Origin: a virus
Length of the DNA: 64,000 nt
Virus record (IMG/VR): IMGVR_UViG_3300037808_001133
Coordinates: 1 to 64,000 of that record
Direction: 5' to 3' (one strand)
Shown here: positions 34,326 through 55,658 of the stretch, piece by piece
How the letters are laid out: every line of letters starts with the position of its first letter
Position numbering within the stretch: position 1 is the first letter of the stretch
Position numbers and translations under genes: made by a program
The notes under the pieces: generated by a model
Databases searched by the model: none
Seen by the model: the letters and a program-made list of their open reading frames with translations, nothing else
What the model was told of the DNA's origin: nothing

Positions 34326-34326
34326 C

Positions 34327-35256
34327 ATGCCAGTAGAGATCACGACGCTTGGCTTGAACCGAGTGCGTCGCACAGACCCCGCGCCGCAAGTGACCGTAGA
34401 CGGAACAGGCTTCAGCGCTGCAAACAACTCAGTGTTCGTGTCAGGGTCGCCAGCCGCTATCGTCGTCCAAGGCACAACTCAGATCACATTCAACTTGCCG
34501 CCGCCGTTTACCTTCGGCTTCATTCCCGACGTTCGGTCGATCCACGTCCCGGTGCTCGTCGTGAACAACGACACGGGAGAGGTCAGCACCGAAGCGTTCG
34601 CCTGGATCAAGGCCGACCTTGACGAAGTCGCCGACGAGCGGATCGCCACGCCGATTCCTGGTCCGTTCGAAGTCACTGCCGCACCCGAGTCGCCTGACGT
34701 CTTTGAAGCTCGCGACATGCACAGGCTCGCCGCGCTCATTGAGTCTTTGCTTGTCGACGTCTCAGCAGGCAACGTCCTCGCATGGGACGGCGCAAAGCTC
34801 GCGGAGCCGACTGGCGTGAAGGGTGGCGGCGGTGGGCAGGTCCTCACCGTTGACCTCGCAGAACCGACGAGCTTGAAGTGGGCGTTCGAACTCGACGCAT
34901 GGCTTCAGTTCGGCGTGACGGTTTCTTCGGGTTTGACTTTGAACATGATCGCGAACGGCGACGGGACAAGCTTCGCCGGTTCCCCTGGTCGAGAGAACTG
35001 GGCGCTCGACGACGGCACGCTTGACTTGGTCAGTTGGCGCGGGCGGTCGAGCGGCGGCGGGACGATCGTGCTTGCCCGGGTATTGGTGAACGGTGTGCAG
35101 CAGTTCACGTCGGGCGCGATCTCGGTTTTCAGCTACACGCAGGCGATCAACGTGCCCGTCCTGAAGGGCGACAAGGTCGAGCTTGAATTGACTTGCTCGG
35201 TCGGCTTAGGTCACGCGGTCGCCTGCGTTGGCGGCATTCGGCTCCTGGTAGACTGA
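34327..35256 (+). CDS. IPT/TIG-domain tail protein, copy 3
   Basis: ATG 34327 is used; upstream in-frame codons are shadow-like. The 309-residue product has APQVTVDGTGFSAANNSVFVSG, helix MHRLAALIESLLVDVS and an end of FSYTQAINVPVLKGDKVELELT. It is more divergent than the first two but has the same three-part design. Confidence 0.65.
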   Translation: MPVEITTLGLNRVRRTDPAPQVTVDGTGFSAANNSVFVSGSPAAIVVQGTTQITFNLPPPFTFGFIPDVRSIHVPVLVVNNDTGEVSTEAFAWIKADLDEVADERIATPIPGPFEVTAAPESPDVFEARDMHRLAALIESLLVDVSAGNVLAWDGAKLAEPTGVKGGGGGQVLTVDLAEPTSLKWAFELDAWLQFGVTVSSGLTLNMIANGDGTSFAGSPGRENWALDDGTLDLVSWRGRSSGGGTIVLARVLVNGVQQFTSGAISVFSYTQAINVPVLKGDKVELELTCSVGLGHAVACVGGIRLLVD

Positions 35257-35260
35257 GGCC

Positions 35261-38200
35261 ATGTTCGGGAACAACTCACTCGCGACGTGGGGGACGAGTC
35301 AGTGGGGAACGATCCTTCCCGCACCTGGGGCTGTGTTCGCCCTGAACGGAAACGTGAGCGGCGACCTCGACAAGACGTTTGCCCTGGACGCGAACGTGGG
35401 CCTCGAGGACCAGGACGCAACCTTCGACCTCGACGCGACGGTCTCAAGGGACGAAGACGCTGTCTTCGCTTTGAGCGCAGCCATTGCCCTATTGCCGCCA
35501 GCCGTCTACGCGCAGATCACGACGAGCCCTTACCTCTTGGTCGAGTTGCTTCTTCCTGCTGGGCCGATAAGGGTCGCGACGAAATACCGGTGCGCCCTCG
35601 GGAGGACCTTCTCTCCGAGGCTTCGCAAGGGCGGTCAAATCCTTCGGACGATTGGCGTAGGAACAGACGACCTCCGGCTTGAGCTCGACGACACGACAAC
35701 GTCAGGCGCTGAGAGGTTCCGTGACCTCTTCGCCGCCGACGCGCCAGAGGGTTCCCTGGTCAGCGTTTGGCTCGGCGCAGACGGCGCGGCCGACGGTGAG
35801 CACCAACTCGTGTTTGAGGGAAAGATCGAACACGTCCAGGGCTTCAGTAAAACTGTAGCCAGGATACAGGTCGTCAGGCGCGAGCAAGTCGAGGACGTGA
35901 TCCTCGGGCAACTCATAGACGCCGTTGCCTTCCCTGACGCGCCGCCCGAGACGATTTCAAGAATGCTCCCAGTCGTTTTCGGGACGCTCGACTCGCACGC
36001 TGGCGTCGTGGTCAACACGAACGTCCTCGGTTCGCTCTTGGTCAACGTGTTCACTGCCGACGTCGTCGTCCAGCTGGTAGACGCTTCCGAGTTCCCTGCA
36101 GCTGGACAGGTAAGGGTCGGCGGCGAACTGATCGACTACACGACAAAGGTCGGGGACGACCTCGGTGGTCTGACTCGCGGGGCTGCTGGTACGATTGCAA
36201 CGGACCACCCGAAGGGCTCAGAGGTCGCTGAGGTCGGAGCGTTCCAAGTCAAGTTCGCGTCTCACTCGCTCGGCTTCCTCCGTCGCTTCAAGCTACGCCT
36301 CCCGAACGGCAACCTCGGCGACCCCGTACCGCAGCCCACGACGGTTGACCCGCTCACGGCACTCGCGACGTGGGACGAAGGGCTCCCACAGATTCGCGAC
36401 CCCGACGCTCGGCCGACCTATCAGCGCATTCACTTCAAGGAACCAGACGCCGCGAACACGGCTTTGAATGCTCAGTTCGCCTCGCGTGAGAGCACCGGCT
36501 ACGAGTGGTCCAAGGTCGCTCAGGTCCCAGGCGGTTCGACGCTCGCGCTCACGACGCACGTCGAAGGCGTCGGTCAACCGGGTGACATATCGCGTGCCTG
36601 GATTGGGTCAATCCACGACGTCCTGTCGGTGCTCGGGATCATTGCGCACGTGAACGCCGGGTCCTCCTCGTTCATTCTTAACGCTTTCGACACGGTGCCC
36701 GATTCGATTGCTCGCAACGACGAGAAGACCGGAGACCGTATCTACGACGTCCCGCCTCCGGTCGTTGACGTGTCGGCTCCTGCGCTCATTGACTTCTCGG
36801 CAACGCCGCAGAACGTCGTTGACCCCGGCCTCTTCGTGACCGTGAGCCGCGCCAGCAACGCCGTCGACAAGAACGACGACACGTTTGCCTGCTACCAATT
36901 CGTCGGCATTGGCGAGGCGATCGTTGCAGGCGGCGGCGACGTTATCTGCCGCTGGACTCAACAGGAGTGGGAGTCGGCCTTCCCAATCGGCTCGACCCCT
37001 GCCTTTATTGAAATCCGTGCGCTCATGGGCACGACGCTTATTCCCCTCTCGTCACCGTGGGAGGTCTACATAACGCTGGACGGTGTCGAGGTTGTCGGCA
37101 CGCGTCTTAAGTGTCAGACGGCGAACCCTGCCGGTGGCTTTGCTGGGTTCATTGCTGGCGTCGAGGAGTTCAAGCTTCCGATCACTGGCGCAATCGACAC
37201 CTCGATAGTTGACGCCTGGGAGCACTACGAGTTCGTCATGCACCCGGTCACGGGCGTATCGACCGGGCTCTGGTGCGCTCACGAGGTCTCGCTTCAAGGT
37301 CAGAACACACCGCCGTTGCCCGTGATCGACGTCTTGCAGGACACGCGCCGCAGCGTCACGAACTACTTTGAGGTCACGGACCAACTCCTCCTCGTTGACG
37401 GCGAGAAGTCGTGGGATTCATTTACTGATCCGGCGGCGCTTGGTCGCGTGACCTTTACGACTGTCGGTGGCGAGCCGCTAATCATTGAGACGTTCTGGGT
37501 CGTTGAGTTCACGCCGTTCGTCAAGGTTTCGCACCGCGTGCCCGACGTCTTCGCTGACGTCACCGGTCTCGTCCCGAGCGGCTCACCGACAGAGATTGCT
37601 CGCACGTTGATTCAAAGGCCCGCACCCGAGGGGCTCGGACTCGGGCCCGACAGAATTGATCAGTCGGCCTACATTGCGGCTGCGTCGTCCCTTGCCGCGG
37701 ACCAGGTGAGGGCCGACTTCGCGCTGAGCACACGAGTGTCTGCCGTCGGGCTCCTCTCCGAGCTTGCCGGGCAAGTCGATTGCCGAGACACCTGGAACAA
37801 CAAGCTGCACCGTCTAGTCCGCTTGCCGAGGGCAGACACGCTCATTCCCGTTGACCACGACTTGTCTAAGGGCGACTACCTCCGTCTAGGCGCTGGCGTC
37901 TCGGCGAAGTCTTTCGGGAGGACCTCGACGCGTGAGGTTGCGAACCGAGTGACCGCGACTTGGCGGCACTACGCCCCGAGCGGCGACACGAGCAAGACGG
38001 TCGAGTTGAACGACGCCGCGAGCCAAGCCTCAAACCTTGGTCTCCGCGAGGGCGTGCTTGAGCTCCAGCTGCTACAGGACGACGCCTCGGCAAACCTTGT
38101 CGCGACCCGGAAGCTCGAGCGCCTGCGAACGCCGCGCTGGACCGTGAGCCTCGACATTCCGATCTACGCCCTCAACTTCAAGGCGGGCGACTTGGTCTCC

Positions 38201-38308
38201 AGTACGGACCCCGAGTTCTCATTCCAAGTCGGCGAGATTACACAGGTAAACTTGAAGGCAGACAGGCTGAAGAGGGTGGGCCTTCTTATCGTCGTCTGGC
38301 TCAAGTAG
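35261..38308 (+). CDS. large tail hub or tip protein
   Basis: The 1015-residue product is among the largest after the tape measure. The first 75 residues hold degenerate FALDAxV repeats; the rest is beta-rich with regions such as FRDLFAADAPEGSLVSVWLG and IQVVRREQVEDVILGQLID that fit the nested barrels of tail-associated hub proteins. The position after the tip genes supports a central fibre or hub role. Confidence 0.55.
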   Translation: MFGNNSLATWGTSQWGTILPAPGAVFALNGNVSGDLDKTFALDANVGLEDQDATFDLDATVSRDEDAVFALSAAIALLPPAVYAQITTSPYLLVELLLPAGPIRVATKYRCALGRTFSPRLRKGGQILRTIGVGTDDLRLELDDTTTSGAERFRDLFAADAPEGSLVSVWLGADGAADGEHQLVFEGKIEHVQGFSKTVARIQVVRREQVEDVILGQLIDAVAFPDAPPETISRMLPVVFGTLDSHAGVVVNTNVLGSLLVNVFTADVVVQLVDASEFPAAGQVRVGGELIDYTTKVGDDLGGLTRGAAGTIATDHPKGSEVAEVGAFQVKFASHSLGFLRRFKLRLPNGNLGDPVPQPTTVDPLTALATWDEGLPQIRDPDARPTYQRIHFKEPDAANTALNAQFASRESTGYEWSKVAQVPGGSTLALTTHVEGVGQPGDISRAWIGSIHDVLSVLGIIAHVNAGSSSFILNAFDTVPDSIARNDEKTGDRIYDVPPPVVDVSAPALIDFSATPQNVVDPGLFVTVSRASNAVDKNDDTFACYQFVGIGEAIVAGGGDVICRWTQQEWESAFPIGSTPAFIEIRALMGTTLIPLSSPWEVYITLDGVEVVGTRLKCQTANPAGGFAGFIAGVEEFKLPITGAIDTSIVDAWEHYEFVMHPVTGVSTGLWCAHEVSLQGQNTPPLPVIDVLQDTRRSVTNYFEVTDQLLLVDGEKSWDSFTDPAALGRVTFTTVGGEPLIIETFWVVEFTPFVKVSHRVPDVFADVTGLVPSGSPTEIARTLIQRPAPEGLGLGPDRIDQSAYIAAASSLAADQVRADFALSTRVSAVGLLSELAGQVDCRDTWNNKLHRLVRLPRADTLIPVDHDLSKGDYLRLGAGVSAKSFGRTSTREVANRVTATWRHYAPSGDTSKTVELNDAASQASNLGLREGVLELQLLQDDASANLVATRKLERLRTPRWTVSLDIPIYALNFKAGDLVSSTDPEFSFQVGEITQVNLKADRLKRVGLLIVVWLK

Positions 38309-38317
38309 GAGAGCGTT

Positions 38318-39469
38318 ATGCCAACAGGATCAAGTCACCATTTCGACGGGCTGCAAGACGGGCAGGGCAACCTCTCCGACGCGAACCTCAACAGCCTTGA
38401 CGCCGGTTGCAATGTTCACGCGGTGCTCGGCAAGCTCCTCGTCAACATTGAGCCCGGTCGGTTCGTTTCTTCTGCTGCGTTTGAGGACTACGCCGGCGCG
38501 ATCGACCAACCGGTCCCAGCCTCAACGGTTGCCGGTGTCGTCTACCTTCTCCCGGCTGGCCCAACGCTCGTGATCGCGGCGGGGCCATTCCCGGGCGGCG
38601 AGCACATGCCGCTTGCCGAGTTCGATTCGGACGGCGTTCAGGTCCTGGCGATCCGCGACAAGCGGGCAACGGTCGGGACGAGCGTCATTGGTGGAGGCCC
38701 GCCCTCTGGCGCAGCCGGTGGCGTGCTCTCCGGCACGTACCCGAACCCCGGGTTCGCAGCTGGCGCGGTCCTTAACGCTCACGTGAACGCCGCCGCCGCG
38801 ATCGCGGAGTCCAAGCTCGCGCTGAATAACCCGACGCACGCGAACGCGAACGACCCGAGCGCTGGCGAGAAGAACGCGCTCGCGGGCACGACTGGAGTCC
38901 CAGGCGGCGGCAACGAGTACGTGACGACGACAGACCCGCGCATGGCTGACGCACGGACGGCTGCGGCGCACGCAGCGTCTCACCAAGACGGAGGTGCCGA
39001 CGAGGTCGCAACGATCACGCCAGCCGCAGACTCGATCCCGAAGGCGCTCGGGACGGGCAAGCTGGACGACGCATGGGTGAACCTCCAGGTGCGCGGACGC
39101 GACCGGGTATACGCCGTAGCTGAAGGGCGCACGACGACGACGCTCGCGCTGCCGCAACTCAAGCTCCAGGTCATTACGCCAGTGCTCACCGGGACCTACA
39201 TGGTTCACTGGCAGGCCGACGTCGACAACAATAACTCGGTGCTGCTCGGCACGGTCAGGCTCCAAGACGTGAGCGCCGCAGCGACTCTCGATCAAAACGA
39301 ATACGGGAACGCTGCGATTCCCCTCACGGCACCGAAGCGCGTATCTGGATTCGTCGAGCTCGTGCTTGTCGCCGAGACCAAGACAATCGAGATTCAGTGG
39401 TTCGACCAGGCAGGCGGCGGCACGCAGGGAATCCAACGTGCGCGGATTGAATTCTTCAGGGTCGGCTAG
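38318..39469 (+). CDS. tail fibre protein, 383 residues
   Basis: Contains the fibre motif GGVLSGTYPNPGFA near residue 130, low-complexity collagen-like segments, and a C-terminal jelly-roll (TGTYMVHWQADVDNNNSV, TIEIQWFDQAGGG) like TNF-fold trimeric tips. The stop is immediately followed by the next start. Confidence 0.65.
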   Translation: MPTGSSHHFDGLQDGQGNLSDANLNSLDAGCNVHAVLGKLLVNIEPGRFVSSAAFEDYAGAIDQPVPASTVAGVVYLLPAGPTLVIAAGPFPGGEHMPLAEFDSDGVQVLAIRDKRATVGTSVIGGGPPSGAAGGVLSGTYPNPGFAAGAVLNAHVNAAAAIAESKLALNNPTHANANDPSAGEKNALAGTTGVPGGGNEYVTTTDPRMADARTAAAHAASHQDGGADEVATITPAADSIPKALGTGKLDDAWVNLQVRGRDRVYAVAEGRTTTTLALPQLKLQVITPVLTGTYMVHWQADVDNNNSVLLGTVRLQDVSAAATLDQNEYGNAAIPLTAPKRVSGFVELVLVAETKTIEIQWFDQAGGGTQGIQRARIEFFRVG

Positions 39470-40584
39470 TGGCACAAAGGCGCGACGCAACTAAGCAGGT
39501 CATTCTTGAGACCCTGGAGGGCGTCCAGGTCTGGCTCGGGGAATGGTCTGCTGTTCACGAGGCGTTGTTCTTGCCAACCGGCGCTCTCGACTTCCCGATC
39601 GCCGGAGCGACTACAGAGAACCCGCCACCGAATCGCGTTCGGCTCAGATACAACGCCGCTGGAACTGCTTTCGAGTTCGTGGACGACGTCGGGACCGTCT
39701 ATCCGATCGGCGGAGGCGCAGGCGTTTCTGATTTCCTCGCGCTTCTCGATACGCCAGCGTCCTACGCAGGCCAGGCCGGCCTGGTGGCAGCCGTGAACGC
39801 TGGCGAGACTGGCATGGAGTTCGTTGCCCAGAGCGGGGGCGGTAGTGGTAGCGGGCTGGCTCGCCTTCGTTCGATGCCGAGCGCCTGTGGGTTCATTGAC
39901 GCAGCCGGCGCCGACGACGGAAAGCAGACAGCGCGTCAATATCAGGGGCTTGGCCTGATCCTTGTCGAGGGCTTCCAGGTTTACGCGGGGACCGGCGGCC
40001 CTGCAAGCCCCGGTGACGAGTCGGACGACGCTGGTGGCAGGACGTCGTTCGTAGAGTTGTCGATGTTCGATGACACGCCAGGCGTAAACGCCACAAACTT
40101 CACGCTAAGAATTGCGATGCCCGAGGGCTTTACCGAGTGGGGAGATGATGGGATCCGCTGGTACACGAAAGTTATAAGCGCGACTGGGCCAGGCGGGCAG
40201 ATCGACCCAACCATCGAGGTGTTCAATCCTCTCACTGGCGCTAGCTACGGGCCGATGCAGGCCACCCGCGCCGTCCCAGAGGCGTCGCTGCCCGAGACCG
40301 CCTATGTGATCCTTCAGATAACAAAGGCCCAGCTTGATGCCGAGCTCGCCGACTTCACGGCGGCCGCAGCGGGCGATGGAGTCTTCAAGCTTAAATGTAG
40401 CTTCCCTGCGCTGGGCGGCTTCTTCCCTGGCGAACAGTGGATTACACGTCTAGGCGCCATCGACATTGACTGGGTAGGGTCTGGCGGCGGCGGCGGTGGC
40501 CCGACCTTCGACCCTGATACGATCCTGGTCAACGCATCGGGCTCCGTCCTGACTAACGGCACAAACGTACTGGTGAGTGGATAA
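39469..40584 (+). CDS. tail fibre protein, 371 residues
   Basis: The GTG start overlaps the preceding stop (TAGTGG). The N-terminus (ILETLEGVQVWLGEWSAVHEAL) is helical, and the body is beta-rich with Gly hinges; the end is GGGGGGPTFDPDTIL. A fibre continuing the cluster. Confidence 0.55.
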   Translation: MAQRRDATKQVILETLEGVQVWLGEWSAVHEALFLPTGALDFPIAGATTENPPPNRVRLRYNAAGTAFEFVDDVGTVYPIGGGAGVSDFLALLDTPASYAGQAGLVAAVNAGETGMEFVAQSGGGSGSGLARLRSMPSACGFIDAAGADDGKQTARQYQGLGLILVEGFQVYAGTGGPASPGDESDDAGGRTSFVELSMFDDTPGVNATNFTLRIAMPEGFTEWGDDGIRWYTKVISATGPGGQIDPTIEVFNPLTGASYGPMQATRAVPEASLPETAYVILQITKAQLDAELADFTAAAAGDGVFKLKCSFPALGGFFPGEQWITRLGAIDIDWVGSGGGGGGPTFDPDTILVNASGSVLTNGTNVLVSG

Positions 40585-41204
40585 TGGCATTGCACAGCGC
40601 AGAGGTTCCGGGCTCAGTCCACGTAGCCCATAACTTCGAGCTCGCTGACGCAGCGGCTCGGATGGCCTTCACCTACGCGGCAACCGACGTCGGCAAGGTC
40701 GTCAGGCAGATAGACGACGGCTCTTTCTGGTTCGTCAAGAGCACGGCTCCCACGTTCTCCGAGGTTGGCGGCGGTGGCGGCGGTGGTGGTGGAACCGCCG
40801 AGATATTCTTTGCGGCCGGCAAGCAGGACAAGGACAGCGGCGACCACGCGGTGACCGAAATTAAGTCCGGCAAGGACAGTAATTTCGAGTTTCATATTCC
40901 GTATGACTTCGCCTCCCTTGTGGAGATCGCCCTGAAGTTCATCCCCGATGCAAACTCGGACGGTCCCGGCCAGGATGTAGACCTGACATCGGACTACGCG
41001 GCGGTCGGGCAGAACAAGTCAACGCATTCAGAGACAGACACGACATCAACATACGACCTCGGAACGGTCGGCAACGTCGAGGAGCTCGACCTGTCTGGAG
41101 TCTTCAACTCACTTTCTCCGGGAGACTCGTGCGGCGTAAATGTTGCTAACAACACGGCCGGAAACATAGACGCCATCGGCTTGCGTCTTAGGTATTCAAA
41201 ATGA
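40584..41204 (+). CDS. tail fibre protein, 206 residues
   Basis: The start shares TAATG with the previous stop. A run of glycines near residue 65 separates an N-terminal attachment domain from a C-terminal beta domain (VEIALKFIPDANSDG, NIDAIGLRLRYSK). Likely a side fibre or tip. Confidence 0.55.
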   Translation: MALHSAEVPGSVHVAHNFELADAAARMAFTYAATDVGKVVRQIDDGSFWFVKSTAPTFSEVGGGGGGGGGTAEIFFAAGKQDKDSGDHAVTEIKSGKDSNFEFHIPYDFASLVEIALKFIPDANSDGPGQDVDLTSDYAAVGQNKSTHSETDTTSTYDLGTVGNVEELDLSGVFNSLSPGDSCGVNVANNTAGNIDAIGLRLRYSK

Positions 41205-41614
41205 TAGAGGCTGGTCGGTCTTGCGGGGAGTGCTCTTTGTGCTGCTTCGCTCCGTCTATCCCATCCATAGGGAAGGAGCAGTACAGCCGCTGCGATCACC
41301 AGGCCGTCTCTCCTAGTGGTAGCTGCGGCATATACGAAGAAGAGAGACCCCCCGCGTGCTCCAACTGCCTGTGGATTCTTGGCCTCCTCGAAGAGGAAGA
41401 TAGGCCAGACAGGATAGGGGTCATCTTCGAGTCGCCAGATTCGATAAGGAAGACAACGAACGTCACGAGGGCGAGGCTAGTGAACGCCACGAATAGGGGC
41501 CGCCTTGTCGTCAAGGCAATCTCTAGAGTGATGCTCCTGGTCGTCACAGACAGGTACGGAAACATGGCAGCAGAAGGACCCAAGGCGCTACCGATAGCGA
41601 AGGTGAATAGGTGA
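41201..41614 (+). CDS. YkgJ-like cysteine cluster protein
   Basis: ATG 41201 overlaps the fibre stop by ATGA. The first 60 residues hold eight cysteines, including CGECSLCC at 8-15, the hallmark of the YkgJ family of putative iron-sulfur or zinc cluster proteins. The rest is alpha/beta. A cytoplasmic metal protein among fibre genes is unexpected; it may modify or fold fibre proteins. The stop overlaps the next gene by GTGA. Confidence 0.6.
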   Translation: MIEAGRSCGECSLCCFAPSIPSIGKEQYSRCDHQAVSPSGSCGIYEEERPPACSNCLWILGLLEEEDRPDRIGVIFESPDSIRKTTNVTRARLVNATNRGRLVVKAISRVMLLVVTDRYGNMAAEGPKALPIAKVNR

Positions 41615-42183
41615 GCAGCCAGTACGCGTACGACTCTTCGGACGTCCACCTGCACACGCTTTCCAAGGAGGTCGAGGGGGAGCTGCCTGGGCTGAGCTTC
41701 ACGGCCTCTGTTAACTCGACAAACCCAGAGCCCAGCCTGGTCTTCGTGTTCGAGCTAGCCCTCTCGGCGGGCGATCTGGTGACGCTGTCCGACGCCATTG
41801 ACGATCACAAGTCAGGAACATCACCGCTCAAGCTTTCAGCGTACAAGTCCGAAAAGCACGACCAGATCGACGTGCGGAGCAATGAGCTGACATTCATCTC
41901 GTTCGATTACGACGGAAAGACATTCTCATCAAGCAGGGACACGGTGCTAAAAACCTCGACGGCTGCGACCGTTGACCTGATGGGCTCCCTCCCTTACCCA
42001 CTCAACATATCGACACTGGACGGTGAGCCGTACTCACTGGTTGACCAGGCCGCGTTCAGGGCGTTCTTCTTAACGATGTTCGGGTCTGGCGCAGCTCACC
42101 ACACCTCAGGCAAGGCGCTCAAGGACCAGGTAGACGCTGCCGAGTCTTGCGCAGAGGTCGATGCCGTGGTGGACGACAGGTAG
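41611..42183 (+). CDS. fibre-cluster protein ended by an in-frame TAG
   Basis: GTG 41611 overlaps the upstream stop. The 190-residue product is beta-rich with ELALSAGDLVTLSDAIDDH and FRAFFLTMFGSG. The frame does not lose coding character at the TAG (42181-42183); it continues for 57 more codons to TGA at 42355. The full-length product would be 248 residues. This is either readthrough, suppression, a recent nonsense change, or sequence error. Confidence 0.6.
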   Translation: MSSQYAYDSSDVHLHTLSKEVEGELPGLSFTASVNSTNPEPSLVFVFELALSAGDLVTLSDAIDDHKSGTSPLKLSAYKSEKHDQIDVRSNELTFISFDYDGKTFSSSRDTVLKTSTAATVDLMGSLPYPLNISTLDGEPYSLVDQAAFRAFFLTMFGSGAAHHTSGKALKDQVDAAESCAEVDAVVDDR

Positions 42184-42357
42184 GCATGGAACAACAAGGG
42201 CTGGGTCGAACTGAAGGCGAGCACTTTCCCGGAGGAGTTTGGGACGGCAAAGATCGGCGGCACGAGGATTGACGGCGGCAAGGTGATTCGCTGCCGGTTC
42301 CACAACACGGGCGACACCGACGTTCGCGTTTCGATTCGCCTTGAGTTCCTTTATTGA
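42184..42357 (+). pseudogene. in-frame continuation of the 41611 gene beyond TAG
   Basis: The continuation (AWNNKGWVELKASTFPEE at the start, RVSIRLEFLY at the end) is in the same frame, uses mostly G or C in the third codon position, and ends at a natural stop just before the next gene. It has no start codon before about codon 34, so it is not an independent gene. Confidence 0.6.
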
Positions 42358-42366
42358 GGTAGAGCC

Positions 42367-42816
42367 ATGCTGGTCTCAGGAGCATTTCGCTGGAGGCACG
42401 TAGGCGTCAAGCTGCGTAGCCGACTAAAGATCGTTGGGATCTTGAACGGGTGCGGACCGAAAGGCGGACCGAAAGGCGGGTGGCTCGCGAGCGTCCTGCC
42501 GAGCAGAATCCTCGGACTGCACATTGAGGAGTTCTGCGATTGGCATGACTTCAACTACACAATCGGCGGAAAGGAAGCCGACCGGGTCAAGGCCGACTGG
42601 CAGTTCTACGAAGCCACTTACGCGCAAGCGATCGCGCTCACCGAGTCGTCGTGCAAGCGCTGGCTTCGACCGCTCTACACGTTCGTCGCCTGGGCCCTGT
42701 ACCGCGCCGTCTGGCTGGACGGTCGCAGGCACTTTCACTACGGAGACCCGAGAAGCGAGGAGGACGTCATGCTGCTCCTCTCGGCGGCTGAGCGCGAACT
42801 CGGGATAGCCGCATAG
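42367..42816 (+). CDS. phospholipase A2-like protein
   Basis: The 149-residue protein has a calcium-loop-like NGCGPKGG (about 27-34), then the active-site motif CDWHDFNY (about 57-64) with the His-Asp pair, and an acidic D.VKADWQF segment. This resembles phospholipase A2 proteins such as those of parvoviruses and some phages. It could damage the host membrane at entry or lysis. A hydrophobic stretch (YTFVAWALYRAVWL) follows. The catalytic pair is seen; activity is inferred. Confidence 0.65.
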   Translation: MLVSGAFRWRHVGVKLRSRLKIVGILNGCGPKGGPKGGWLASVLPSRILGLHIEEFCDWHDFNYTIGGKEADRVKADWQFYEATYAQAIALTESSCKRWLRPLYTFVAWALYRAVWLDGRRHFHYGDPRSEEDVMLLLSAAERELGIAA

Positions 42817-42832
42817 CTCACGCCGAATCGCC

Positions 42833-42841
42833 TGGTAGACT
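42833..42841 (+). promoter_or_regulatory. -10-like TGGTAGACT element
   Basis: CTGGTAGACTGA occurs here and at 35246, just before another tail gene, and a close form lies at 12267. It precedes the 42859 gene. No good -35. Confidence 0.35.
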
Positions 42842-42858
42842 GACCGGGGAGGCAACCC

Positions 42859-43374
42859 ATGGCCAACAATCTAAGAAACCCCGTCGAGGTCAGTCCCGGC
42901 GTTCGTGACACGGACCAGGACGGCACCCCCGACGTCAACACGGTGTCAACCCCGTTCGGCGAGACCAAGGGAACCGACTGGGTCTCCGAGTGGTTCGCGA
43001 TCGACGGCGTCGAGCACGGTGCCGAAGAACTCTCCGTCATGTGCTTTGTCGATTGGCAGGGAGCTACGTTCATTGACCTGCTCCCGCAACTGCGCCACGA
43101 CCAGGACGCCAAGCCCGCCGACCCGCAGGGACTCGTTCGCGAGGCCGAGGCGCTGCCCGTCGCGGTGTTCGACGGCTCGCGCCTCGACACGAACTTTGAA
43201 GCCGTGCAGGACACCGTTCGGTTGCTCGCTGCGAACTTCCGAGTTGACCCCGGTTCGCAGGAGGTCGCGTTCGCTGTCGGCGGCGTAAGCCAGGTTCGCT
43301 TCCTGGCCCAGTCCGACGGCGCTCCGGTGCTGCGCATGCAGCTGCTCTCGGGTGGCGGTTGGCGTGGGGCTTAG
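42859..43374 (+). CDS. structural protein, 171 residues
   Basis: ATG 42859 follows GGGGAGG. The product is beta-rich (WVSEWFAIDGVEHGAEELSV, VRLLAANFRVDPG) and acidic, typical of a virion decoration or tip subunit. It overlaps the next gene by 23 bases. Confidence 0.5.
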   Translation: MANNLRNPVEVSPGVRDTDQDGTPDVNTVSTPFGETKGTDWVSEWFAIDGVEHGAEELSVMCFVDWQGATFIDLLPQLRHDQDAKPADPQGLVREAEALPVAVFDGSRLDTNFEAVQDTVRLLAANFRVDPGSQEVAFAVGGVSQVRFLAQSDGAPVLRMQLLSGGGWRGA

Positions 43375-43729
43375 CGCAGACCGCTCGCGCAACGCTGTCT
43401 CGACAGCCCTTGGCGAGCCGCTCACGCTCAAGCGCGGCAACCGACTCCCGGGTCTGACCGCGAACTTGTTTGCCCCTGACGGGAACCCAGCTTCCTTGCC
43501 AGGGACCGTCACGTTCAGAATGCGAGAGGTCTTCACCCGCGTGACCAAGATCGCAGCTGGCGCGGTCACGATACTTGACCCCGGGACAGCGTCGGTGCTC
43601 TACGCTTGGCAGGCGACCGACACGGACACGCCAGCCGTCTACGAGGCATGGTTTGATCACACCGACTTGAGCGGCCGCGTCGAGTCCTACCCGAGTCAGG
43701 GAGCCATGCGTGTCAGGGTTGAGCCATAG
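43352..43729 (+). CDS. baseplate- or fibre-type beta protein
   Basis: The 125-residue product has a single beta-sandwich pattern: GTVTFRMREV, GAVTILDPGTASVLYAWQ, TPAVYEAWFDHTD. It resembles immunoglobulin-like baseplate upper proteins that bind fibres. Start at GTG 43352 is uncertain (43364 also possible). Confidence 0.5.
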   Translation: MAVGVGLSADRSRNAVSTALGEPLTLKRGNRLPGLTANLFAPDGNPASLPGTVTFRMREVFTRVTKIAAGAVTILDPGTASVLYAWQATDTDTPAVYEAWFDHTDLSGRVESYPSQGAMRVRVEP

Positions 43730-43934
43730 CGACCCAGCGTTCCGCGACCCCGTAAGAGGGGACAGGATCAGGAGGGGCCCGAACGAGTACCGCGTGACTG
43801 GGCGCGGCGTTGCCCGCTCAGTCCGGTTCGTCCGGTTGACCGATTCAGGGCACAGCCTGGTCGGGCAGAAGTCGATTCAGTGCTGGCGACGGCTAATCGA
43901 GACCGGCACAGTCGTTGAGCACGGCGGTCGCTAG
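43710..43934 (+). CDS. unknown small protein, 74 residues
   Basis: GTG 43710 overlaps the preceding gene by 20 bases. The product is basic (DPVRGDRIRRGPNEYRV), possibly a small beta barrel of SH3 type. It ends the plus-strand block; its TAG and the stop of the minus-strand HNH gene share CTAG. Confidence 0.5.
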   Translation: MSGLSHSDPAFRDPVRGDRIRRGPNEYRVTGRGVARSVRFVRLTDSGHSLVGQKSIQCWRRLIETGTVVEHGGR

Positions 43935-44431
43935 ACGACGTCCTTCCAGAGCGTCCCGTCTTCGATCTTCGCAATCGTCGTCCGGCTGACCTTGAACAAC
44001 GCAGCGAGACGCGTCTTCGTTGCGCCAGCCCGAAGGTAGCGCTTGATCGACGAAGCTTGTTCCCTCGTGAGCGCCTGCCCTTTCTTCCTGCCACCGCGAG
44101 CCCGCTGATTGCGAACGGCGTCGGCCCTGTTCTCCTTTCGCGTTCCCCAACGGAGATTCGACAGCTTGTTGTTCAGCGGGTCGTCGTCCCAGTGGAGTCC
44201 CTCTTGGCCCTCGGGACACTTCCCGCTGAAGGCAAGGAGGACGAGTCGGTGCAGCAGTCGCGGGTGCGTCTTGTCGTTGCGCCGCAGCGAGACCCGCTGG
44301 TGACCCGACCCGCACGGCTGCGGCTTGAGACACTTGTTTGTCCTGCCCGAGTGAACCCTTCCGAGGTTCGATACCAAGTAACCCGGGAATCCCGGGACCT
44401 GCCTCCATTGCTCGTGACCGAACGCGCTCAT
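43931..44431 (-). CDS. NUMOD4-HNH homing endonuclease
   Basis: ATG 44431 was chosen because GAGGAG precedes it; an upstream GTG lacks one. The 166-residue product has NUMOD4 (QWRQVPGFPGYLVSNLGRV), an HNH core (GLHWDDDPLNNKLSNLRWGT) and a C-terminal helix-turn-helix (KTRLAALFKVSRTTIAKIEDG) for DNA recognition. Such free-standing endonucleases spread themselves by cutting related phages. It is downstream of folE, separated by a 413-base spacer full of palindromes. Confidence 0.85.
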   Translation of the reverse strand: MSAFGHEQWRQVPGFPGYLVSNLGRVHSGRTNKCLKPQPCGSGHQRVSLRRNDKTHPRLLHRLVLLAFSGKCPEGQEGLHWDDDPLNNKLSNLRWGTRKENRADAVRNQRARGGRKKGQALTREQASSIKRYLRAGATKTRLAALFKVSRTTIAKIEDGTLWKDVV

Positions 44432-44452
44432 GCTCCTCACGGTACAGCACTA

Positions 44453-44519
44453 GGCTCCAGCCACAAACGCTCCTTCGGTGATCATGCCGACCGAGCGTCT
44501 GTCTATGTTGGCTGGAGCC
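44453..44519. other. palindrome unit 1
   Basis: A perfect 11-bp inverted repeat (GGCTCCAGCCA with TGGCTGGAGCC, arms at 44453-44463 and 44509-44519) encloses a second 6-bp stem (ACGCTC/GAGCGT). On the minus strand it ends 22 bases before the HNH start codon. Confidence 0.8.
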
Positions 44520-44527
44520 AGTCCTAC

Positions 44528-44578
44528 AAAGACAGATCGCCGAAGGCGACTGAGCCTGACGAAGTCAGGTCTGTCTTT
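44528..44578. other. palindrome unit 2, three-way junction
   Basis: Outer 9-bp stem AAAGACAGA/TCTGTCTTT (44528-44536, 44570-44578); inner hairpins TCGCC-GAA-GGCGA (44537-44549) and CCTGAC-GAA-GTCAGG (44555-44569). All pairs are Watson-Crick, and only a 5-base linker between the inner hairpins is unpaired. Confidence 0.85.
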
Positions 44579-44635
44579 TCATTCGTCTGTACAGCAAGCG
44601 ACCCCGACTACAAGAGCCGAGGCCGTTACTGCGCA

Positions 44636-44652
44636 CTCGAGCGGAGCTCGAG
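44636..44652. other. CTCGAG hairpin
   Basis: CTCGAG at 44636-44641 and 44647-44652 around CGGAG; lies between units 2 and 3. Confidence 0.6.
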
Positions 44653-44658
44653 GGCCGC

Positions 44659-44725
44659 GGTCATAACGAAGGCGAAAGGGCCGCAGGCCCGGTTCTGCGA
44701 AGCAGAATTTGCCTTCGTCATGACC
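44659..44725. other. palindrome unit 3, three-way junction
   Basis: Outer stem of 17 bp (GGTCAT/ATGACC, one A.C mismatch, ACGAAGGC/GCCTTCGT, one bulged G, AAA/TTT); inner hairpins GGGCC-GCA-GGCCC (44678-44690) and TTCTGC-GAA-GCAGAA (44693-44707). The last contains GCGAAGC, a known exceptionally stable DNA mini-hairpin. Confidence 0.85.
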
Positions 44726-44832
44726 TTCTACGTGTGGACTTGGACCAACCTCAGAGGGCGAAACGCACCTCCTCAAACAGTAGCCACCGACGTCCTGTAA
44801 GAGAGGGAAGAATACCAACCTCGTCTGACAGA

Positions 44833-44857
44833 ACGGGGTGAACCCTACGAACCCCGT
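44833..44857 (-). terminator. hairpin at folE stop, possible terminator
   Basis: ACGGGGT (44833-44839) pairs with ACCCCGT (44851-44857) around the folE stop codon. On the minus strand a TCTGTC follows rather than a clean T-run, so termination is uncertain. Confidence 0.35.
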
Positions 44858-45426
44858 GCAAGCGCCATGAACTCAGCGCGGGCTTCCGGCTTCGTGCGAA
44901 AGACACCGAGCGCACAGGACGTCACCATTCGCGCACCGGCCTTGCCTACGCCCCTGCAAGACATACACGCATGGGTTGCCTCAATCACCACGCAGACGCC
45001 GCCAGCGCTAAGGGCGTCGTTCAAGGTCGTCGCGATCTGAGTGGTCATGCGCTCTTGAACTTGCAGCCGCCGTGCGAAGCAATCGACAAGTCGCGCAAGC
45101 TTGGAGAGCCCGACTATCTTGTCACCAGGGAGGTAGCCGACAGTCGCGAACCCGGTGAACGGAAGCATGTGGTGCTCGCAAAGCGACGAGAAGGGAATGT
45201 CCCGAAGGATCACGACCTCGTCGTGCTTCTCGTCGAACTGCGTGCTCAGGATTTTCTCCGGGTCCTCGTGGTAACCACGGGTCATTTCGATCATGGCCTT
45301 CACGACCCGCTTCGGAGTGTCGTTCAGACCTTCGCGGTCCGGGTCTGGGTCTAGCAGTTCCAGTAGGCAACTGACACCCTCTTGGGCCTTCGTCTTGAGC
45401 ATTGCTCGTCGTGTTTCTTCGTTCAT
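44845..45426 (-). CDS. folE: GTP cyclohydrolase I
   Basis: The 193-residue enzyme converts GTP to dihydroneopterin triphosphate, the first step to preQ0. Zinc ligand motif CEHH at 83-86, GYLPGDKIVGLSKLARLVD, the VQERMT motif and the CMSCRGV segment at 154-160 are all present. It is the last gene of a minus-strand run with queC and the dpdA pair, nine bases after queC. In the phage it should feed deazapurine synthesis for DNA modification. Confidence 0.93.
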   Translation of the reverse strand: MNEETRRAMLKTKAQEGVSCLLELLDPDPDREGLNDTPKRVVKAMIEMTRGYHEDPEKILSTQFDEKHDEVVILRDIPFSSLCEHHMLPFTGFATVGYLPGDKIVGLSKLARLVDCFARRLQVQERMTTQIATTLNDALSAGGVCVVIEATHACMSCRGVGKAGARMVTSCALGVFRTKPEARAEFMALARGS

Positions 45427-45435: not shown

Positions 45436-46125
45436 CTACCCGAGCGCCGGGATCACGACCGAGTCGGGGTCGAGCGAATACTCGGCGAGGTCTTTCACGT
45501 CAGCGATCCTGAACGCTTCGATTCGCTCGACGCACGTCCCGCACTTGCCGCAATGCTTCTCGCCGCCCTCGTAGCAAGTCCAGGTCGAAGCCCAGTCCAC
45601 GCCGAGCTTGTCGCCGAGCCGGGCAATGTCGGCCTTGCTCTTGTTGACGAACGGTCGAAGGATTTGCTTCGGGTCGAAGTGGCACAGCTTCGCCGCCTCG
45701 TTCATTGCGTCGGCGAACTCGGGTCGGCAGTCAGGATAGACGGCGTGGTCGCCAGCGTGCGCAGCGTAGGCGACAGCGTCATAGCCGAGCGCAACGCAGC
45801 GGCCCAACGCGACAGACAGAAGGATCATGTTTCGGTTCGGGACGACCGTTGCCTTCATGGACTCCTCGGCGTAGTGCCCGTGCGGGACCGGAACGCTGTC
45901 GTCGGTGAGCGCCGAGCCCCCGAGTATGTCGCGGAGCGCCGTGAGGTCCGCGACGACGTGCGTGACGCCGAGCTTGTCGCAAGTGGCCTTCGCAAAGCCG
46001 AGTTCCTTCTTGTGCCGCTGTCCGTAGTCAATGGAGATCGCGGAGACCAGGTGGCCCTCGTCGCGCAGCTGGTAGAGAAGGGCGGTGGAGTCCATGCCAC
46101 CTGATAGGACGCAAAGAATTTTCAC
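45436..46125 (-). CDS. queC: 7-cyano-7-deazaguanine synthase
   Basis: The 229-residue enzyme makes preQ0 from 7-carboxy-7-deazaguanine with ATP and ammonia. The PP-loop SGGMDST is at residues 8-14, followed by PNRNMILL and a four-cysteine zinc site (CYEGGEKHCGKCGTC) near the end. The GTG start overlaps the stop of the upstream dpdA-like gene, so they are translated together. Confidence 0.95.
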   Translation of the reverse strand: MKILCVLSGGMDSTALLYQLRDEGHLVSAISIDYGQRHKKELGFAKATCDKLGVTHVVADLTALRDILGGSALTDDSVPVPHGHYAEESMKATVVPNRNMILLSVALGRCVALGYDAVAYAAHAGDHAVYPDCRPEFADAMNEAAKLCHFDPKQILRPFVNKSKADIARLGDKLGVDWASTWTCYEGGEKHCGKCGTCVERIEAFRIADVKDLAEYSLDPDSVVIPALG

Positions 46126-47114
46126 GGTGTCGCCTCCTTGGCGATCGGTTGATTTGGAAGGAGCGGGAACGTGTAGCGTTCAAACGTCTCGGCGAGCCGG
46201 CGCTGGAATGCTGGCCTGTCCTTCTTCATGAGGATTCGAAGGCCCTCACAATAACTGCGAGCCTCCTGGTAGTCGAACAGTTCCCCGTTCTTCGCGTGCA
46301 GGACCGAGGCAATCTCCTTGATCCAAGACTCGGACCCCGCGAAGAAGTAAGCCTGCCCGCGCTCCGCGGCATGAACGTGAAGGTTCATGTACGCGTTGAC
46401 GCCCATGAGTGACGCGAGTCCGGTGCGGCCTGTATACGCCGCCGGGTCCTGAAGGATTTTAGTCGTGACGTTACAGCGGCTCGCGTGGCGCAGAACGTAG
46501 GGCGCGAGCTTCTTGGCCTTGCTCATTCGACCGCGAGCCTTGTCGTAGACCATGAAGTAACCGGAGAGCCGACCGTGACCGAACGAGTGGGAGTCAACGG
46601 TCGCGATCGGCAGCTGGAACATTTCGGGGAGGCGCGTGTAGCCGAGCGCGTGAACCTTCGCGTTGCCGCCCGTCACCTTCGCGATTTGCTGGTATCGGTG
46701 GTGAGCGTACTGCGGTCGCGCTCCGACGCACCCGCCAACGCAGACGCGCCCGTCGAGGTAGGTGAGGAGCTTCGGGACAATGTCGAAGCTCATGCCGGGA
46801 GAGAACACGGGCATTGGAGTCAGCCCGTCCTGATACAGCTGGTCAAGCTGCATGGCGGTCACGGCTGGCCTGGCTGGGTCGTCGAGCGAGACGTATGCCC
46901 AGACGCGTCCGTGAACTTGCTGCATGGCCTTTGAGTAGCTCTTGAAGCTAATCGGCGGCACCTTCCCCTTGAGCTCGCTCACGAAGTTCGTGTAGCCGCC
47001 CGAGTCAATCAGGAGGTTCGCGACGTTGGTGATCGAGAGCATGTCCTCCCAGTCGCGAGTCCCGGGCTTGCAATGGGCAATCGTGTAGAGAAGGTTGAGT
47101 CGGGGAATCCTCAT
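46122..47114 (-). CDS. dpdA: DpdA-like DNA 7-deazaguanine transglycosylase, copy 2
   Basis: The 330-residue protein is related to tRNA-guanine transglycosylase. LLIDSGGYTNF places Asp37 where the TGT proton-shuttling Asp sits, and ATVDSHSF (Asp174) is a candidate nucleophile; MPVFSPGMSF, GGCVGARPQYAHHRYQ and HALGYTRLP are shared with the neighbouring copy. The tRNA-type zinc cysteines are absent, as in the DNA-specific DpdA enzymes. ATG 47114 overlaps the stop of copy 1. It should exchange guanine for a 7-deazaguanine base in phage DNA. Confidence 0.8.
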   Translation of the reverse strand: MRIPRLNLLYTIAHCKPGTRDWEDMLSITNVANLLIDSGGYTNFVSELKGKVPPISFKSYSKAMQQVHGRVWAYVSLDDPARPAVTAMQLDQLYQDGLTPMPVFSPGMSFDIVPKLLTYLDGRVCVGGCVGARPQYAHHRYQQIAKVTGGNAKVHALGYTRLPEMFQLPIATVDSHSFGHGRLSGYFMVYDKARGRMSKAKKLAPYVLRHASRCNVTTKILQDPAAYTGRTGLASLMGVNAYMNLHVHAAERGQAYFFAGSESWIKEIASVLHAKNGELFDYQEARSYCEGLRILMKKDRPAFQRRLAETFERYTFPLLPNQPIAKEATP

Positions 47115-48043
47115 GCCTTCAGAAGCTCCGCTAGCGCAGCCCGTTCGGCTGGCTTGCCTGTCCCGAGGTCCAAGAGGTCTTGCCTGATCTTGCATGCGAG
47201 CGGGTAGTCAAACGTCTCACCGGTCTTCGCCGCCCTCACGGCTGCGATCACGCGGAGGTAGTTCTCCTCAAGCGCGAAGAAGAACATGGGGCCCGCGCTG
47301 CGCGACTCGCAGAAGTTGTGAATGTTCAGGAACGCGTTCACGGTCATGGTCGAGACGACGCTCATTTGCCCCTTCGTGTTCTCGCGCATGGCGTCGGTCG
47401 TCACCTTGCACTTCGCGGCGTGCGCGAGCATTGGGGGAGACCATTTGCCGAGCTTCTCGCTCAGCATGGTCCCGCGCCGCTTGTCGAACTTGCAGGCGGT
47501 GCCGAACCTCCCGCCTGACTGGTAAGAGGTGGAGTCACAGCTTGCGATCGGGACGCGGAACATATCCGGCAGGCGCGTGTAGCCAAGCGCGTGAACCTTG
47601 ACCGAGCCCTTCGTGAGCTTCGCGATCTTCTGATACCGGTGGTGAGCGTACTGGGGCCGCGCACCAACGCAGCCCCCGACGCACAGCCACCCTTTCCCCT
47701 GCTCGGCAAGGCGCGGGACCTCGGCGAACGACATACCCGGAGAGAACACCGGCATGACGTCGAGGTTGATCTTCGCGAAGTAGTCGAGGTTCTCCTTCGT
47801 CACCTTCGCGTTGCCCGGGTCGTCGAGGGCAATGACCTTCCACGCCGCGCCACCGAGCGCACGGTGGCGCTCGACGTACTGGTCCCGGGTCAGGAGCGGC
47901 TCCCTGCCCCGGAGTTGCTGCGTGAAGTTCGTGTAGCCACCCGAGTCGATCAGCAGCCGGGCGTGCGGCGCTATCGTGAGGGCCGTCTCCCACGGCGGCG
48001 TCCCCGGTTTCAGGAACGCGAGACTGTAGAGGAAGTTGAGCAC
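47111..48043 (-). CDS. dpdA: DpdA-like DNA 7-deazaguanine transglycosylase, copy 1
   Basis: The 310-residue product starts at GTG 48043, four bases after the ParB-fold gene. It carries LLIDSGGYTNF (Asp33), MPVFSPGMSF, GGCVGARPQYAHH and ASCDSTSY (Asp170). Large stretches match copy 2, so they arose by tandem duplication. Having two may give different sequence preferences, a heteromer, or different bases; this cannot be told from sequence. The product is shorter than bacterial DpdA. Confidence 0.82.
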   Translation of the reverse strand: MLNFLYSLAFLKPGTPPWETALTIAPHARLLIDSGGYTNFTQQLRGREPLLTRDQYVERHRALGGAAWKVIALDDPGNAKVTKENLDYFAKINLDVMPVFSPGMSFAEVPRLAEQGKGWLCVGGCVGARPQYAHHRYQKIAKLTKGSVKVHALGYTRLPDMFRVPIASCDSTSYQSGGRFGTACKFDKRRGTMLSEKLGKWSPPMLAHAAKCKVTTDAMRENTKGQMSVVSTMTVNAFLNIHNFCESRSAGPMFFFALEENYLRVIAAVRAAKTGETFDYPLACKIRQDLLDLGTGKPAERAALAELLKA

Positions 48044-54061: not shown

Positions 54062-54279
54062 GCCGTGTCCCTCGGTGTTCTTTTCTTGAGTCCTTTTCGA
54101 AATCGATCGCAGTGCCCAACGAGGCACCGCAGCGTTGCTTCCATTTCCTGTGTCGTTGACCCCTGCTCCATTGCCTTGAGCGCGAACCCTCGGAGGTATT
54201 CGTTGAGGTCCTGGTCGGTCACGACGAGGGAGTCAACGCAACCTCGTCGCGGCCCGAACCTTTCGTGTGCCTGTTTCAT
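54058..54279 (-). CDS. unknown protein, 73 residues
   Basis: ATG 54279 overlaps the helicase stop (ATGA). Helical and basic with one CxxxxxC pair (CLVGHC). Probably a helicase accessory from the coupling. No family. Confidence 0.5.
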   Translation of the reverse strand: MKQAHERFGPRRGCVDSLVVTDQDLNEYLRGFALKAMEQGSTTQEMEATLRCLVGHCDRFRKGLKKRTPRDTA

Positions 54280-55658
54280 GCCGGGGTGAACCGCGTGAAC
54301 GTCTTCTCAAAGCGAAGTCTGACCATGCCGGTTGGACCGTTCCTGTTCTTCGCCACGTTCAGGAGCGCAAGCTCGTTGAGTTCAGGCTTGTCGGGGAAGT
54401 AGTACTCGGGTCGGTGAAGCAGCATGATCACGTCGGCGTCTTGCTCGACCTGCCCGCTGTCTCGTAGGTCGGCCATGATCGGTTTCTTGTCGCTCCGGTC
54501 CTCGACCTTCCGGTTCAACTGCGCGAGCACGCACAGGTGAATGTTCAGTTGCCTGGCGTAGCGCTTGAGCATGATTGAGACCTCCGTGATTTCTGCGTAG
54601 CGACCACCGCCCCGTGTGTTCTCCGTTCCCGAGAGCAGCTGCATGTAATCGACGAAGACGATTCGGCATTGGTGCCGCTGGACCATTCGCTCAAGCACGC
54701 GTCCGAGGTCCCGCACCGAAGCGACCACGCCGTCGAAGACGCCCAGGCGTTCGCCGGTCTGTTCAAGCCACATGATCCCGTCGACGGTCCTGCCGTATTC
54801 CTGTTTCGCTGTCTCGCTGTCGAAGCGACCCGGTTCGGTCTCGCCGAAGACCCCGCGTCGAATCTTGGTCGTGTCCACGCCGCCGAACGAACCGGTCGCG
54901 TTGCACGCCAGCTGGAGGCGATCCATTTCCAAGCTCGCGATCCCGACGCGCTCGTTCCGGTTGAGCATTGCGGCTGCGAGGCAAAGCGCGAGGCTCGTCT
55001 TTCCCATGCTCGGTCGCGCTGCAAGGATCGACATTTCGCGGGGCCTGAAACACTGGACGACTTCGTCAAGGTCTCGCCAGCCCGACACGACACCCGGGTC
55101 ACGGTTGGGATCGTTGACGTGGTCCAGCAGTTCCTTCGCGAGCACGTCCCCGGAGTAAATCTTCTGACTTGCCCGGTCGGCGGTCACGGCGAAGAGGAGC
55201 TCATGCGCCTTGTCGAATGTGTCGGCGACCTTCCCATTGCTCCAGCCAAGCTCAACGATCCTCGCGCCGGCTTCGATCAGTTGCCTCTTCCGCGAGAGGG
55301 CCATAACGATCTTCGCGTAGTAGTTCACCTGCGCAGCGGTCGGGACGGTGTCTACCTCAAGCACGACGAGGTCGGTCTTTTGGTCGTCGCTCAGTGCCGA
55401 GCCTTGCCGCTCCATGTCGTTCGTGACCGCAAGGGCGTCCACGGGAATCCGCCGCTCACGAAGAGAGGCCATGCTTCCCCAGACTGCCGAGAGCCAGGGG
55501 CTGTAGAAATCTTTCGGGGCGAGCGGGGTCTCGAGTTCGTCCAGCCCCTTGTATCGATCGAAGCATGCAGCGAGCACGTTTCGTTCGGCGTCTTTGTTGT
55601 TCGGTGGCGTTCGTCGGAGGAGCGGGTTAGGTGCCTCTCCTGTTGTCCATGATTCCAT
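54276..55658 (-). CDS. DnaB-like replicative helicase
   Basis: The 460-residue enzyme unwinds DNA at the fork. An N-terminal DnaB domain (NNKDAERNVLAACF, DFYSPWLSAVW) is followed by the RecA-like motor with Walker A ARPSMGKTS (214-222), a Walker B FVDYMQLL and LAQLNRKVE and DLRDSGQVEQDADVIM motifs. The ATG follows GAAGGA. It overlaps the replication initiator gene by 32 bases, as helicase genes follow O-type initiators in many phages. Confidence 0.9.
   Translation of the reverse strand: MESWTTGEAPNPLLRRTPPNNKDAERNVLAACFDRYKGLDELETPLAPKDFYSPWLSAVWGSMASLRERRIPVDALAVTNDMERQGSALSDDQKTDLVVLEVDTVPTAAQVNYYAKIVMALSRKRQLIEAGARIVELGWSNGKVADTFDKAHELLFAVTADRASQKIYSGDVLAKELLDHVNDPNRDPGVVSGWRDLDEVVQCFRPREMSILAARPSMGKTSLALCLAAAMLNRNERVGIASLEMDRLQLACNATGSFGGVDTTKIRRGVFGETEPGRFDSETAKQEYGRTVDGIMWLEQTGERLGVFDGVVASVRDLGRVLERMVQRHQCRIVFVDYMQLLSGTENTRGGGRYAEITEVSIMLKRYARQLNIHLCVLAQLNRKVEDRSDKKPIMADLRDSGQVEQDADVIMLLHRPEYYFPDKPELNELALLNVAKNRNGPTGMVRLRFEKTFTRFTPA

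What the first reader, a model, noticed from the sequence alone, without database searches (positions are those of the whole stretch)
44453..44725. Tandem palindromic elements forming GNA-triloop three-way junctions
Three fold-back units lie within 275 bases. Units 2 (44528-44578) and 3 (44659-44725) each have an outer stem enclosing two inner hairpins, with almost no unpaired bases at the junction. All four inner hairpins have triloops on the plus strand of the form GNA (GAA, GAA, GCA, GAA) closed by C-G, and one contains GCGAAGC, known as an exceptionally stable DNA mini-hairpin. This is unlikely by chance and suggests function as single-stranded DNA (origin, packaging site, or hairpin promoter as for N4 virion RNA polymerase, which uses 3-base-loop hairpins) or as a structured RNA. 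AAV ITRs have a similar T shape, only as an analogy.
Basis: partly seen in the sequence, partly recalled or inferred. Interest (0 to 1): 0.85.

Follow-up and report, generated by a model that had tools for sequence, protein, structure and literature searches.

The report
Folded non-coding element in two phages
Next to a DNA-cutting gene, an uncultivated bacterial virus carries a stretch of DNA that folds into Y-shaped hairpins, and a distant relative keeps the same shape after most letters of its main stem have changed in matching pairs, which suggests the shape is useful, although its job is unproven.

Summary
Window 44453-44725 contains two three-way junctions (3WJ; 44528-44578 and 44659-44725). 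They are the only ones of their kind in 76 kb of phage sequence; 0.03 are expected per shuffled genome. Five perfect triloop hairpins, not four, all read C(GNA)G on the + strand. The region is the strongest folding outlier of the record, most strongly as minus-strand RNA. It lies between folE and an I-HmuI-type HNH homing-endonuclease gene. One relative was found: an 81-kb phage contig in a Planctomycetota MAG (TerL 75% identical). It has the homologous HNH gene and, upstream of it, a homologue of unit 3. There nine outer-stem pairs and one inner pair are changed on both sides yet still pair, the loops stay GNA, and a flanking non-coding block is conserved. The upstream genes differ. Rfam has no match. 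Best reading: regulatory leader of the HNH gene, a sequence-conserved block followed by a folded 5' leader RNA. A site acting as folded single-stranded + strand DNA (Streptomyces telomeres follow the same loop rule) is not excluded. N4-type promoter, retroelement, IscB/HEARO and a true telomere are not supported. Strand and molecule remain undecided, and only two sequences exist.

The parts
44726..44833 (-). Non-coding block conserved in sequence (73% over 105 aligned bases; 50 of 62 in its best part) between the two phages; proposed promoter/operator of HNH
   Evidence: Alignment with L104; mismatches evenly spread over codon positions (4/5/3), so not coding; no conserved fold above shuffled columns
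44754..44771 (-). Small hairpin GAGG-T-GCG-TTT-CGC-CCTC (minus strand) inside the block; sibling GAAG-A-GCG-TTT-CGC-CTTC keeps it with one two-sided change
   Evidence: Sequences; present in the minimum-energy folds
44659..44725 (-). Unit 3: three-way junction, 15-bp outer stem (minus strand) around two triloop hairpins, GGGCC-GCA-GGCCC and TTCTGC-GAA-GCAGAA on +; the part conserved in the sibling (L104:10192-10264)
44633..44655 (-). Fifth hairpin, CTCGAGC-GGA-GCTCGAG on + (44636-44652), plus two outer GC pairs
   Evidence: absent in the sibling
44591..44632 (-). 18-bp stem with one bulge and 5 G-U pairs, formed only on the minus strand as RNA
   Evidence: z -4.0 minus, +0.2 plus; 0.6% of random 53-nt segments of the genome reach z -4; absent in the sibling
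44528..44578 (-). Unit 2: three-way junction, 8-9 bp outer stem around TCGCC-GAA-GGCGA and CCTGAC-GAA-GTCAGG (+ strand)
   Evidence: absent in the sibling
44453..44519 (-). Unit 1: long hairpin with a 10-11 bp basal stem, a 7-nt bulge, internal loop and an 8-nt apical loop; no GNA loop
44433..44438 (-). Ribosome-binding site GAGGAG of HNH (ATG at 44431)
   Evidence: Sequence
43931..44440 (-). HNH homing endonuclease gene, NUMOD4 + HNH_3, I-HmuI type; linked to the element in both phages
   Evidence: Pfam; 1U3E match E 3e-15; sibling 67% identical

Best explanation
The element is the upstream regulatory region of a free-standing I-HmuI-type HNH homing-endonuclease gene. A sequence-conserved block (44726-44833) is probably its promoter/operator. 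The array of three-way junctions and hairpins (44453-44725) is transcribed on the minus strand as a folded 5' leader that ends about 15 nt before the ribosome-binding site and limits or times translation, or protects the message. Shown by sequence: position, non-chance fold, conservation of the fold with compensating changes, conservation of a non-coding block, linkage to HNH in two phages. Inferred: that it is transcribed, that the minus strand is the working one, and what it does to the HNH message.
For: Same strand as HNH, ends just upstream of its RBS. Minus-strand RNA fold is the extreme of the genome. The 18-bp stem here and the sibling's 12-bp hairpin are continuous only on minus through G-U pairs. 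Two-sequence consensus energy of the 3WJ is better on minus (-42.0 vs -36.2). Sibling keeps block + 3WJ + hairpin + HNH although the gene upstream of it differs (folE here, a DUF7768 gene there). Nine two-sided changes in the outer stem and one in an inner stem. Precedent: T4-type homing endonuclease genes are controlled by RNA structures near the RBS, and seg43(25) has a very stable hairpin immediately upstream of an open RBS (PMC2988022). Predicted RBS accessibility is lower with the leader (0.31-0.45 vs 0.60; sibling 0.10-0.23).
Against: Every triloop obeys C(GNA)G on the opposite (+) strand, a rule known for DNA, not for C(UNC)G RNA triloops. A wobble near the junction is G-U on + in both phages. 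Related HNH genes in other phages follow directly behind another gene without such a leader. No promoter-like site was found (sigma-70 consensus only). Only two sequences, so no formal covariation statistics; unit number is not conserved.
Confidence: 0.4

Rival explanations
1. A DNA site that works when the + strand is single-stranded or when cruciforms are extruded: GNA-triloop hairpins and Y-shaped junctions are recognised by a replication, priming or nicking protein, as in Streptomyces telomeres and parvovirus ends. The adjacent I-HmuI-type enzyme, from a family of nickases, could be involved.
For: All five loops here and both in the sibling are C(GNA)G on the same strand, N varying. Streptomyces telomeres fetched here show mainly C(TNC)G on the 5' strand, that is GNA on the 3' strand, as published for all six telomere classes (PMC8743542). 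In Streptomyces, paired hairpins closed by sheared G-A pairs are likened to parvovirus 'rabbit ears' (PMC4513846). I-HmuI-type enzymes nick DNA (PMC3428280). Junction pairing of unit 3 is more complete on +.
Against: Internal position, collinear with the sibling; no similarity to telomeres in plasmids; no HUH, Tap or Tpg-like protein recognised among those scanned; the 18-bp stem and the sibling's hairpin pair only as minus-strand RNA.
Confidence: 0.27
2. A bidirectional transcription terminator or insulator at the convergent junction of the structural genes (+) and the leftward genes (-), with HNH inserted beside it.
For: Convergent position in both phages. Palindromes fold in both transcripts. 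Unit 2 ends in TTTT on +.
Against: Only unit 2 has a short T tract; terminator-like sites are not above shuffles (3 vs 1.9 +- 1.4). Does not explain the uniform GNA loops or the conserved block. No comparable structures in 400 kb of the MAG's genome.
Confidence: 0.18
3. A selfish or neutral array of palindromes, grown by duplication and kept perfect by template switching at DNA hairpins, without function.
For: Unit number varies between the phages (units 1 and 2, the 44591-44632 stem and the fifth hairpin are absent from the sibling). Short stretches are shared between units 1, 2 and 3. Template switching could restore pairing and would favour the most stable single-stranded DNA loops.
Against: Inner hairpins, junction and the neighbouring non-coding block are 73-77% identical, about as well conserved as or better than most coding DNA of the two genomes. 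No further copies in the phages, the MAG or about 1.5 Mb of other sequence.
Confidence: 0.15

Closest known systems
Structured leaders of phage homing-endonuclease genes (I-TevI to III, segB, mobE; seg43(25) of Aeromonas phage 25)
   Same: RNA structure next to the RBS of a phage homing-endonuclease gene; in seg43(25) a very stable hairpin stands just upstream of an open RBS (PMC2988022)
   Different: Those are single hairpins; here an array with two three-way junctions, uniform triloops and a conserved block; transcription not shown
Streptomyces telomere palindromes
   Same: Tightly packed palindromes, GNA triloops with one polarity
   Different: Internal, not at an end; no palindrome I (CCCGCGGAGCGGG); no sequence similarity; no 3WJ by the same search in six telomeres
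Ornate large RNAs of bacteria and phages (GOLLD, ROOL, OLE)
   Same: Multi-branched non-coding structure; the class is described in PMC12286853
   Different: No Rfam match at gathering or relaxed thresholds; shorter; the conserved core is one 3WJ
HEARO RNA / IscB omega RNA
   Same: Structured RNA candidate upstream of an HNH nuclease gene
   Different: The protein is a 169-aa NUMOD4-HNH homing endonuclease, not a RuvC-HNH protein; no HEARO match in Rfam
N4 virion RNA polymerase promoters and phage G4 complementary-strand origin
   Same: Small, very stable hairpins with GAA-type loops in single-stranded DNA (general knowledge)
   Different: No virion RNA polymerase-sized gene; double-stranded DNA phage with its own DnaB-like helicase; three-way junctions

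Membership tests
Structured leader of a phage homing-endonuclease gene | Downstream gene is a homing endonuclease of a known family | tested here: met
   NUMOD4 + HNH_3; I-HmuI 1U3E E 3e-15
Structured leader of a phage homing-endonuclease gene | RNA structure at or directly upstream of the RBS | tested here: met
   Predicted, minus strand, both phages
Structured leader of a phage homing-endonuclease gene | Structure is transcribed and alters translation | not testable with these tools
   Needs RNA data; predicted RBS accessibility only
Streptomyces-type telomere | GNA triloops of one polarity | tested here: met
Streptomyces-type telomere | Located at the end of a linear replicon | tested here: not met
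   Internal; DNA continues collinear with the sibling on the left and through folE on the right
Streptomyces-type telomere | Tap/Tpg-type end-patching proteins | tested here: inconclusive
   No match among the unknown proteins scanned; not all ORFs were scanned and it was not checked that the libraries hold Tap/Tpg models
N4-type hairpin promoter | Giant virion RNA polymerase (about 3500 aa) | tested here: not met
   Longest ORF 1191 aa in the window; no ORF near that size among those listed at the right end; the extra 7.5 kb is too short for one
Retron / diversity-generating retroelement | Reverse transcriptase | tested here: not met
   PF00078 absent from the 68.6-kb record
Group I intron or any Rfam family | Covariance-model match | tested here: not met
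HEARO / IscB | RuvC plus HNH effector and HEARO RNA | tested here: not met
   169-aa NUMOD4-HNH protein; no HEARO match
Intrinsic terminator | Hairpin followed by a U-tract | tested here: inconclusive
   Only unit 2 (TTTT on +); number of sites not above shuffles

The most novel reading that the evidence does not exclude
A new class of phage DNA element that acts as a folded + strand: telomere-like GNA-triloop three-way junctions placed inside the genome beside an I-HmuI-type nickase and serving as its nicking, priming or protection site. This would be a nickase plus hairpin module unrelated to HUH/parvovirus or Tap/Tpg systems.
Probability: 0.15. Interest if true: 0.85.

Novelty: new variant of a known kind. 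Interest (0 to 1): 0.52.

Why it matters
It is an unannotated, conserved nucleic-acid fold in a little-known phage group (one member from a Planctomycetota MAG) with no Rfam family. If it is a leader RNA, it is an unusually elaborate control region for a selfish endonuclease. If it works as DNA, it would put telomere-type hairpins inside a phage genome. The uniform GNA rule gives a sharp test between the two: change the loop's outer bases and see which process fails.

Tried and rejected
Direct DNA similarity of the element in phages and plasmids: nothing meaningful. Relatives by FolE, HNH, DpdA, tail protein and MCP in IMG/VR: no sibling; TerL worked. More siblings in 294 Planctomycetota and 154 same-class genomes: none. 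Covariance model of unit 3 on 79 FolE loci and 47 HNH loci: at most marginal hits (best 20.5 bits). Coding explanation of the conserved block: rejected, mismatches evenly spread over codon positions. Conserved secondary structure of the block itself: not above shuffled columns. The HNH family as carrier of the fold: related HNH genes in two Pseudomonas phages and a Mycobacterium phage follow directly behind another gene. Host repeats as source: no further unit-3-like copy in the MAG, no 3WJ in 400 kb of it. The first z-scan timed out and was redone more lightly.

Full report
Observation. The sequence is as described. Folding of 44440-44740 gives two three-way junctions, one long hairpin and further stems. 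A search for two adjacent triloop hairpins (stems >=5) inside an outer stem (>=7) finds two in the 68.6-kb record, at 44528-44578 and 44666-44718 (inside unit 3). Sixty dinucleotide-shuffled genomes gave two in total. Adding 7.5 kb from an overlapping record gives no further one of that kind. Among 280-nt tiles the region is the clear extreme.

What surrounds it. The record is a phage (TerL 455-2275, major head protein 21066-22235, DnaB helicase 54276-55658). The element lies between the end of folE (44845) and an HNH gene read leftwards (43931-44440), at the convergent junction of the rightward structural genes and leftward genes. The HNH protein is of the I-HmuI type. IMG/VR record 3300037842_000997 joins 52921-68600, 7465 new bases and 1-13467, so the genome is at least 76 kb and our contig lacks the join.

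The sibling. TerL found one relative, JAJDEU010000047.1, an 81-kb contig in a Planctomycetota MAG. It matches ours in the same order and direction over most of 32113-44427, that is late genes and HNH (HNH 67% identical). Upstream of HNH it carries a non-coding block 73% identical to the block right of unit 3 and a 3WJ homologous to unit 3 at L104:10192-10264. The inner hairpins are nearly the same: GGGCC-GCA-GGCCC becomes GGGCC-GAA-GGCCC, and TTCTGC-GAA-GCAGAA becomes TTCCGC-GAA-GCGGAA. Of 15 outer pairs, nine differ on both sides and still pair, three differ on one side (one of these is a mismatch in the sibling), and three are unchanged. A model from unit 3 alone finds the sibling at 52 bits. 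It is the only 3WJ of this kind on the sibling contig. Units 1 and 2, the 44591-44632 stem and the fifth hairpin are missing there; a different 12-bp hairpin stands before the HNH start. The gene upstream differs: folE here, a DUF7768 gene there. So the constant unit is block + 3WJ + hairpin(s) + HNH, and palindromic units were gained here or lost there.

Which strand and molecule. For RNA on the minus strand: same direction as HNH; better fold; better two-sequence consensus (-42.0 vs -36.2); the 18-bp stem at 44591-44632 and the sibling's 12-bp hairpin are continuous only through G-U on minus. The 18-bp stem by itself is only moderately unusual (0.6% of random segments reach its z). For DNA on the plus strand: every triloop in both phages is C(GNA)G there; that rule is known for DNA mini-hairpins (general knowledge) and telomeres. 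Real Streptomyces telomeres fetched here show mainly C(TNC)G on the 5' strand, that is GNA on the 3' strand, as published (PMC8743542; PMC4513846). One wobble near the junction is G-U on plus in both phages. I cannot decide; I put leader RNA at 0.40 and a DNA site at 0.27.

Mechanism proposed. Block = promoter/operator of HNH; array = folded 5' leader. The precedent is the control of T4-type homing endonucleases by RNA structure near the RBS and, for I-TevI, by an operator resembling the homing site (PMC2988022). Predicted RBS accessibility falls from 0.60 to 0.31-0.45 with the leader and is 0.10-0.23 in the sibling. These are predictions only; transcription has not been shown.

Rejected readings. 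N4-type promoters need a giant polymerase gene that is not there. Retrons and diversity-generating retroelements need a reverse transcriptase. No Rfam family matches either phage's element. A true telomere would lie at an end. HEARO needs a RuvC-HNH protein.

Limits. Two sequences give compensating changes but no formal covariation statistics. The sibling was found through one gene, and its host assignment rests on MAG binning. Template switching could also create perfect stems, although it does not explain the conserved block.

Noticed in passing
46122-48043 (-), with queC 45436-46125 and folE 44845-45426: Two tandem queuine tRNA-ribosyltransferase-like (DpdA-like, phrog_887) genes, 47% identical to each other, beside queC and folE: probable 7-deazaguanine DNA modification with a duplicated transferase.
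   Followed up: partly
window 1 and G000:C1:68600: The 68.6-kb record is not complete: IMG/VR 3300037842_000997 bridges its two ends with 7465 bases not in the record, so the genome is at least 76 kb and closes on itself.
   Followed up: yes
56183-56330: Tandem 15-bp repeats (TTCAGTTGAACGTGC) and a large palindrome inside an HTH_36 initiator-like gene just upstream of the DnaB-like helicase gene: a likely replication origin.
   Followed up: no
44721-44737, and L161:18466-18482: An exact 17-base match (TGACCTTCTACGTGTGG) between the start of the conserved block and a place inside a predicted zinc-ribbon ORF elsewhere in the same genome; could be a second binding site or chance.
   Followed up: partly
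10414-12036 (+): ADP-ribosyltransferase domain (PF03496) in the C-terminal part of a protein encoded next to the portal-like gene.
   Followed up: no
3005-4162 (+): Protein with ABC-type ATPase and GNAT acetyltransferase matches (phrog_11143, E 3e-96), next to a ParB-like gene.
   Followed up: no
L082:3891-5435 (-), record 63891-65435: CDC48/FtsH-type AAA ATPase in the phage.
   Followed up: no
55653, 56671, 57464, 59888: A repeated motif (CTCCTTCAGTTGGG on +, CCCAACTGAAGGAG on -) among the leftward genes; probably a shared leader with ribosome-binding site.
   Followed up: no
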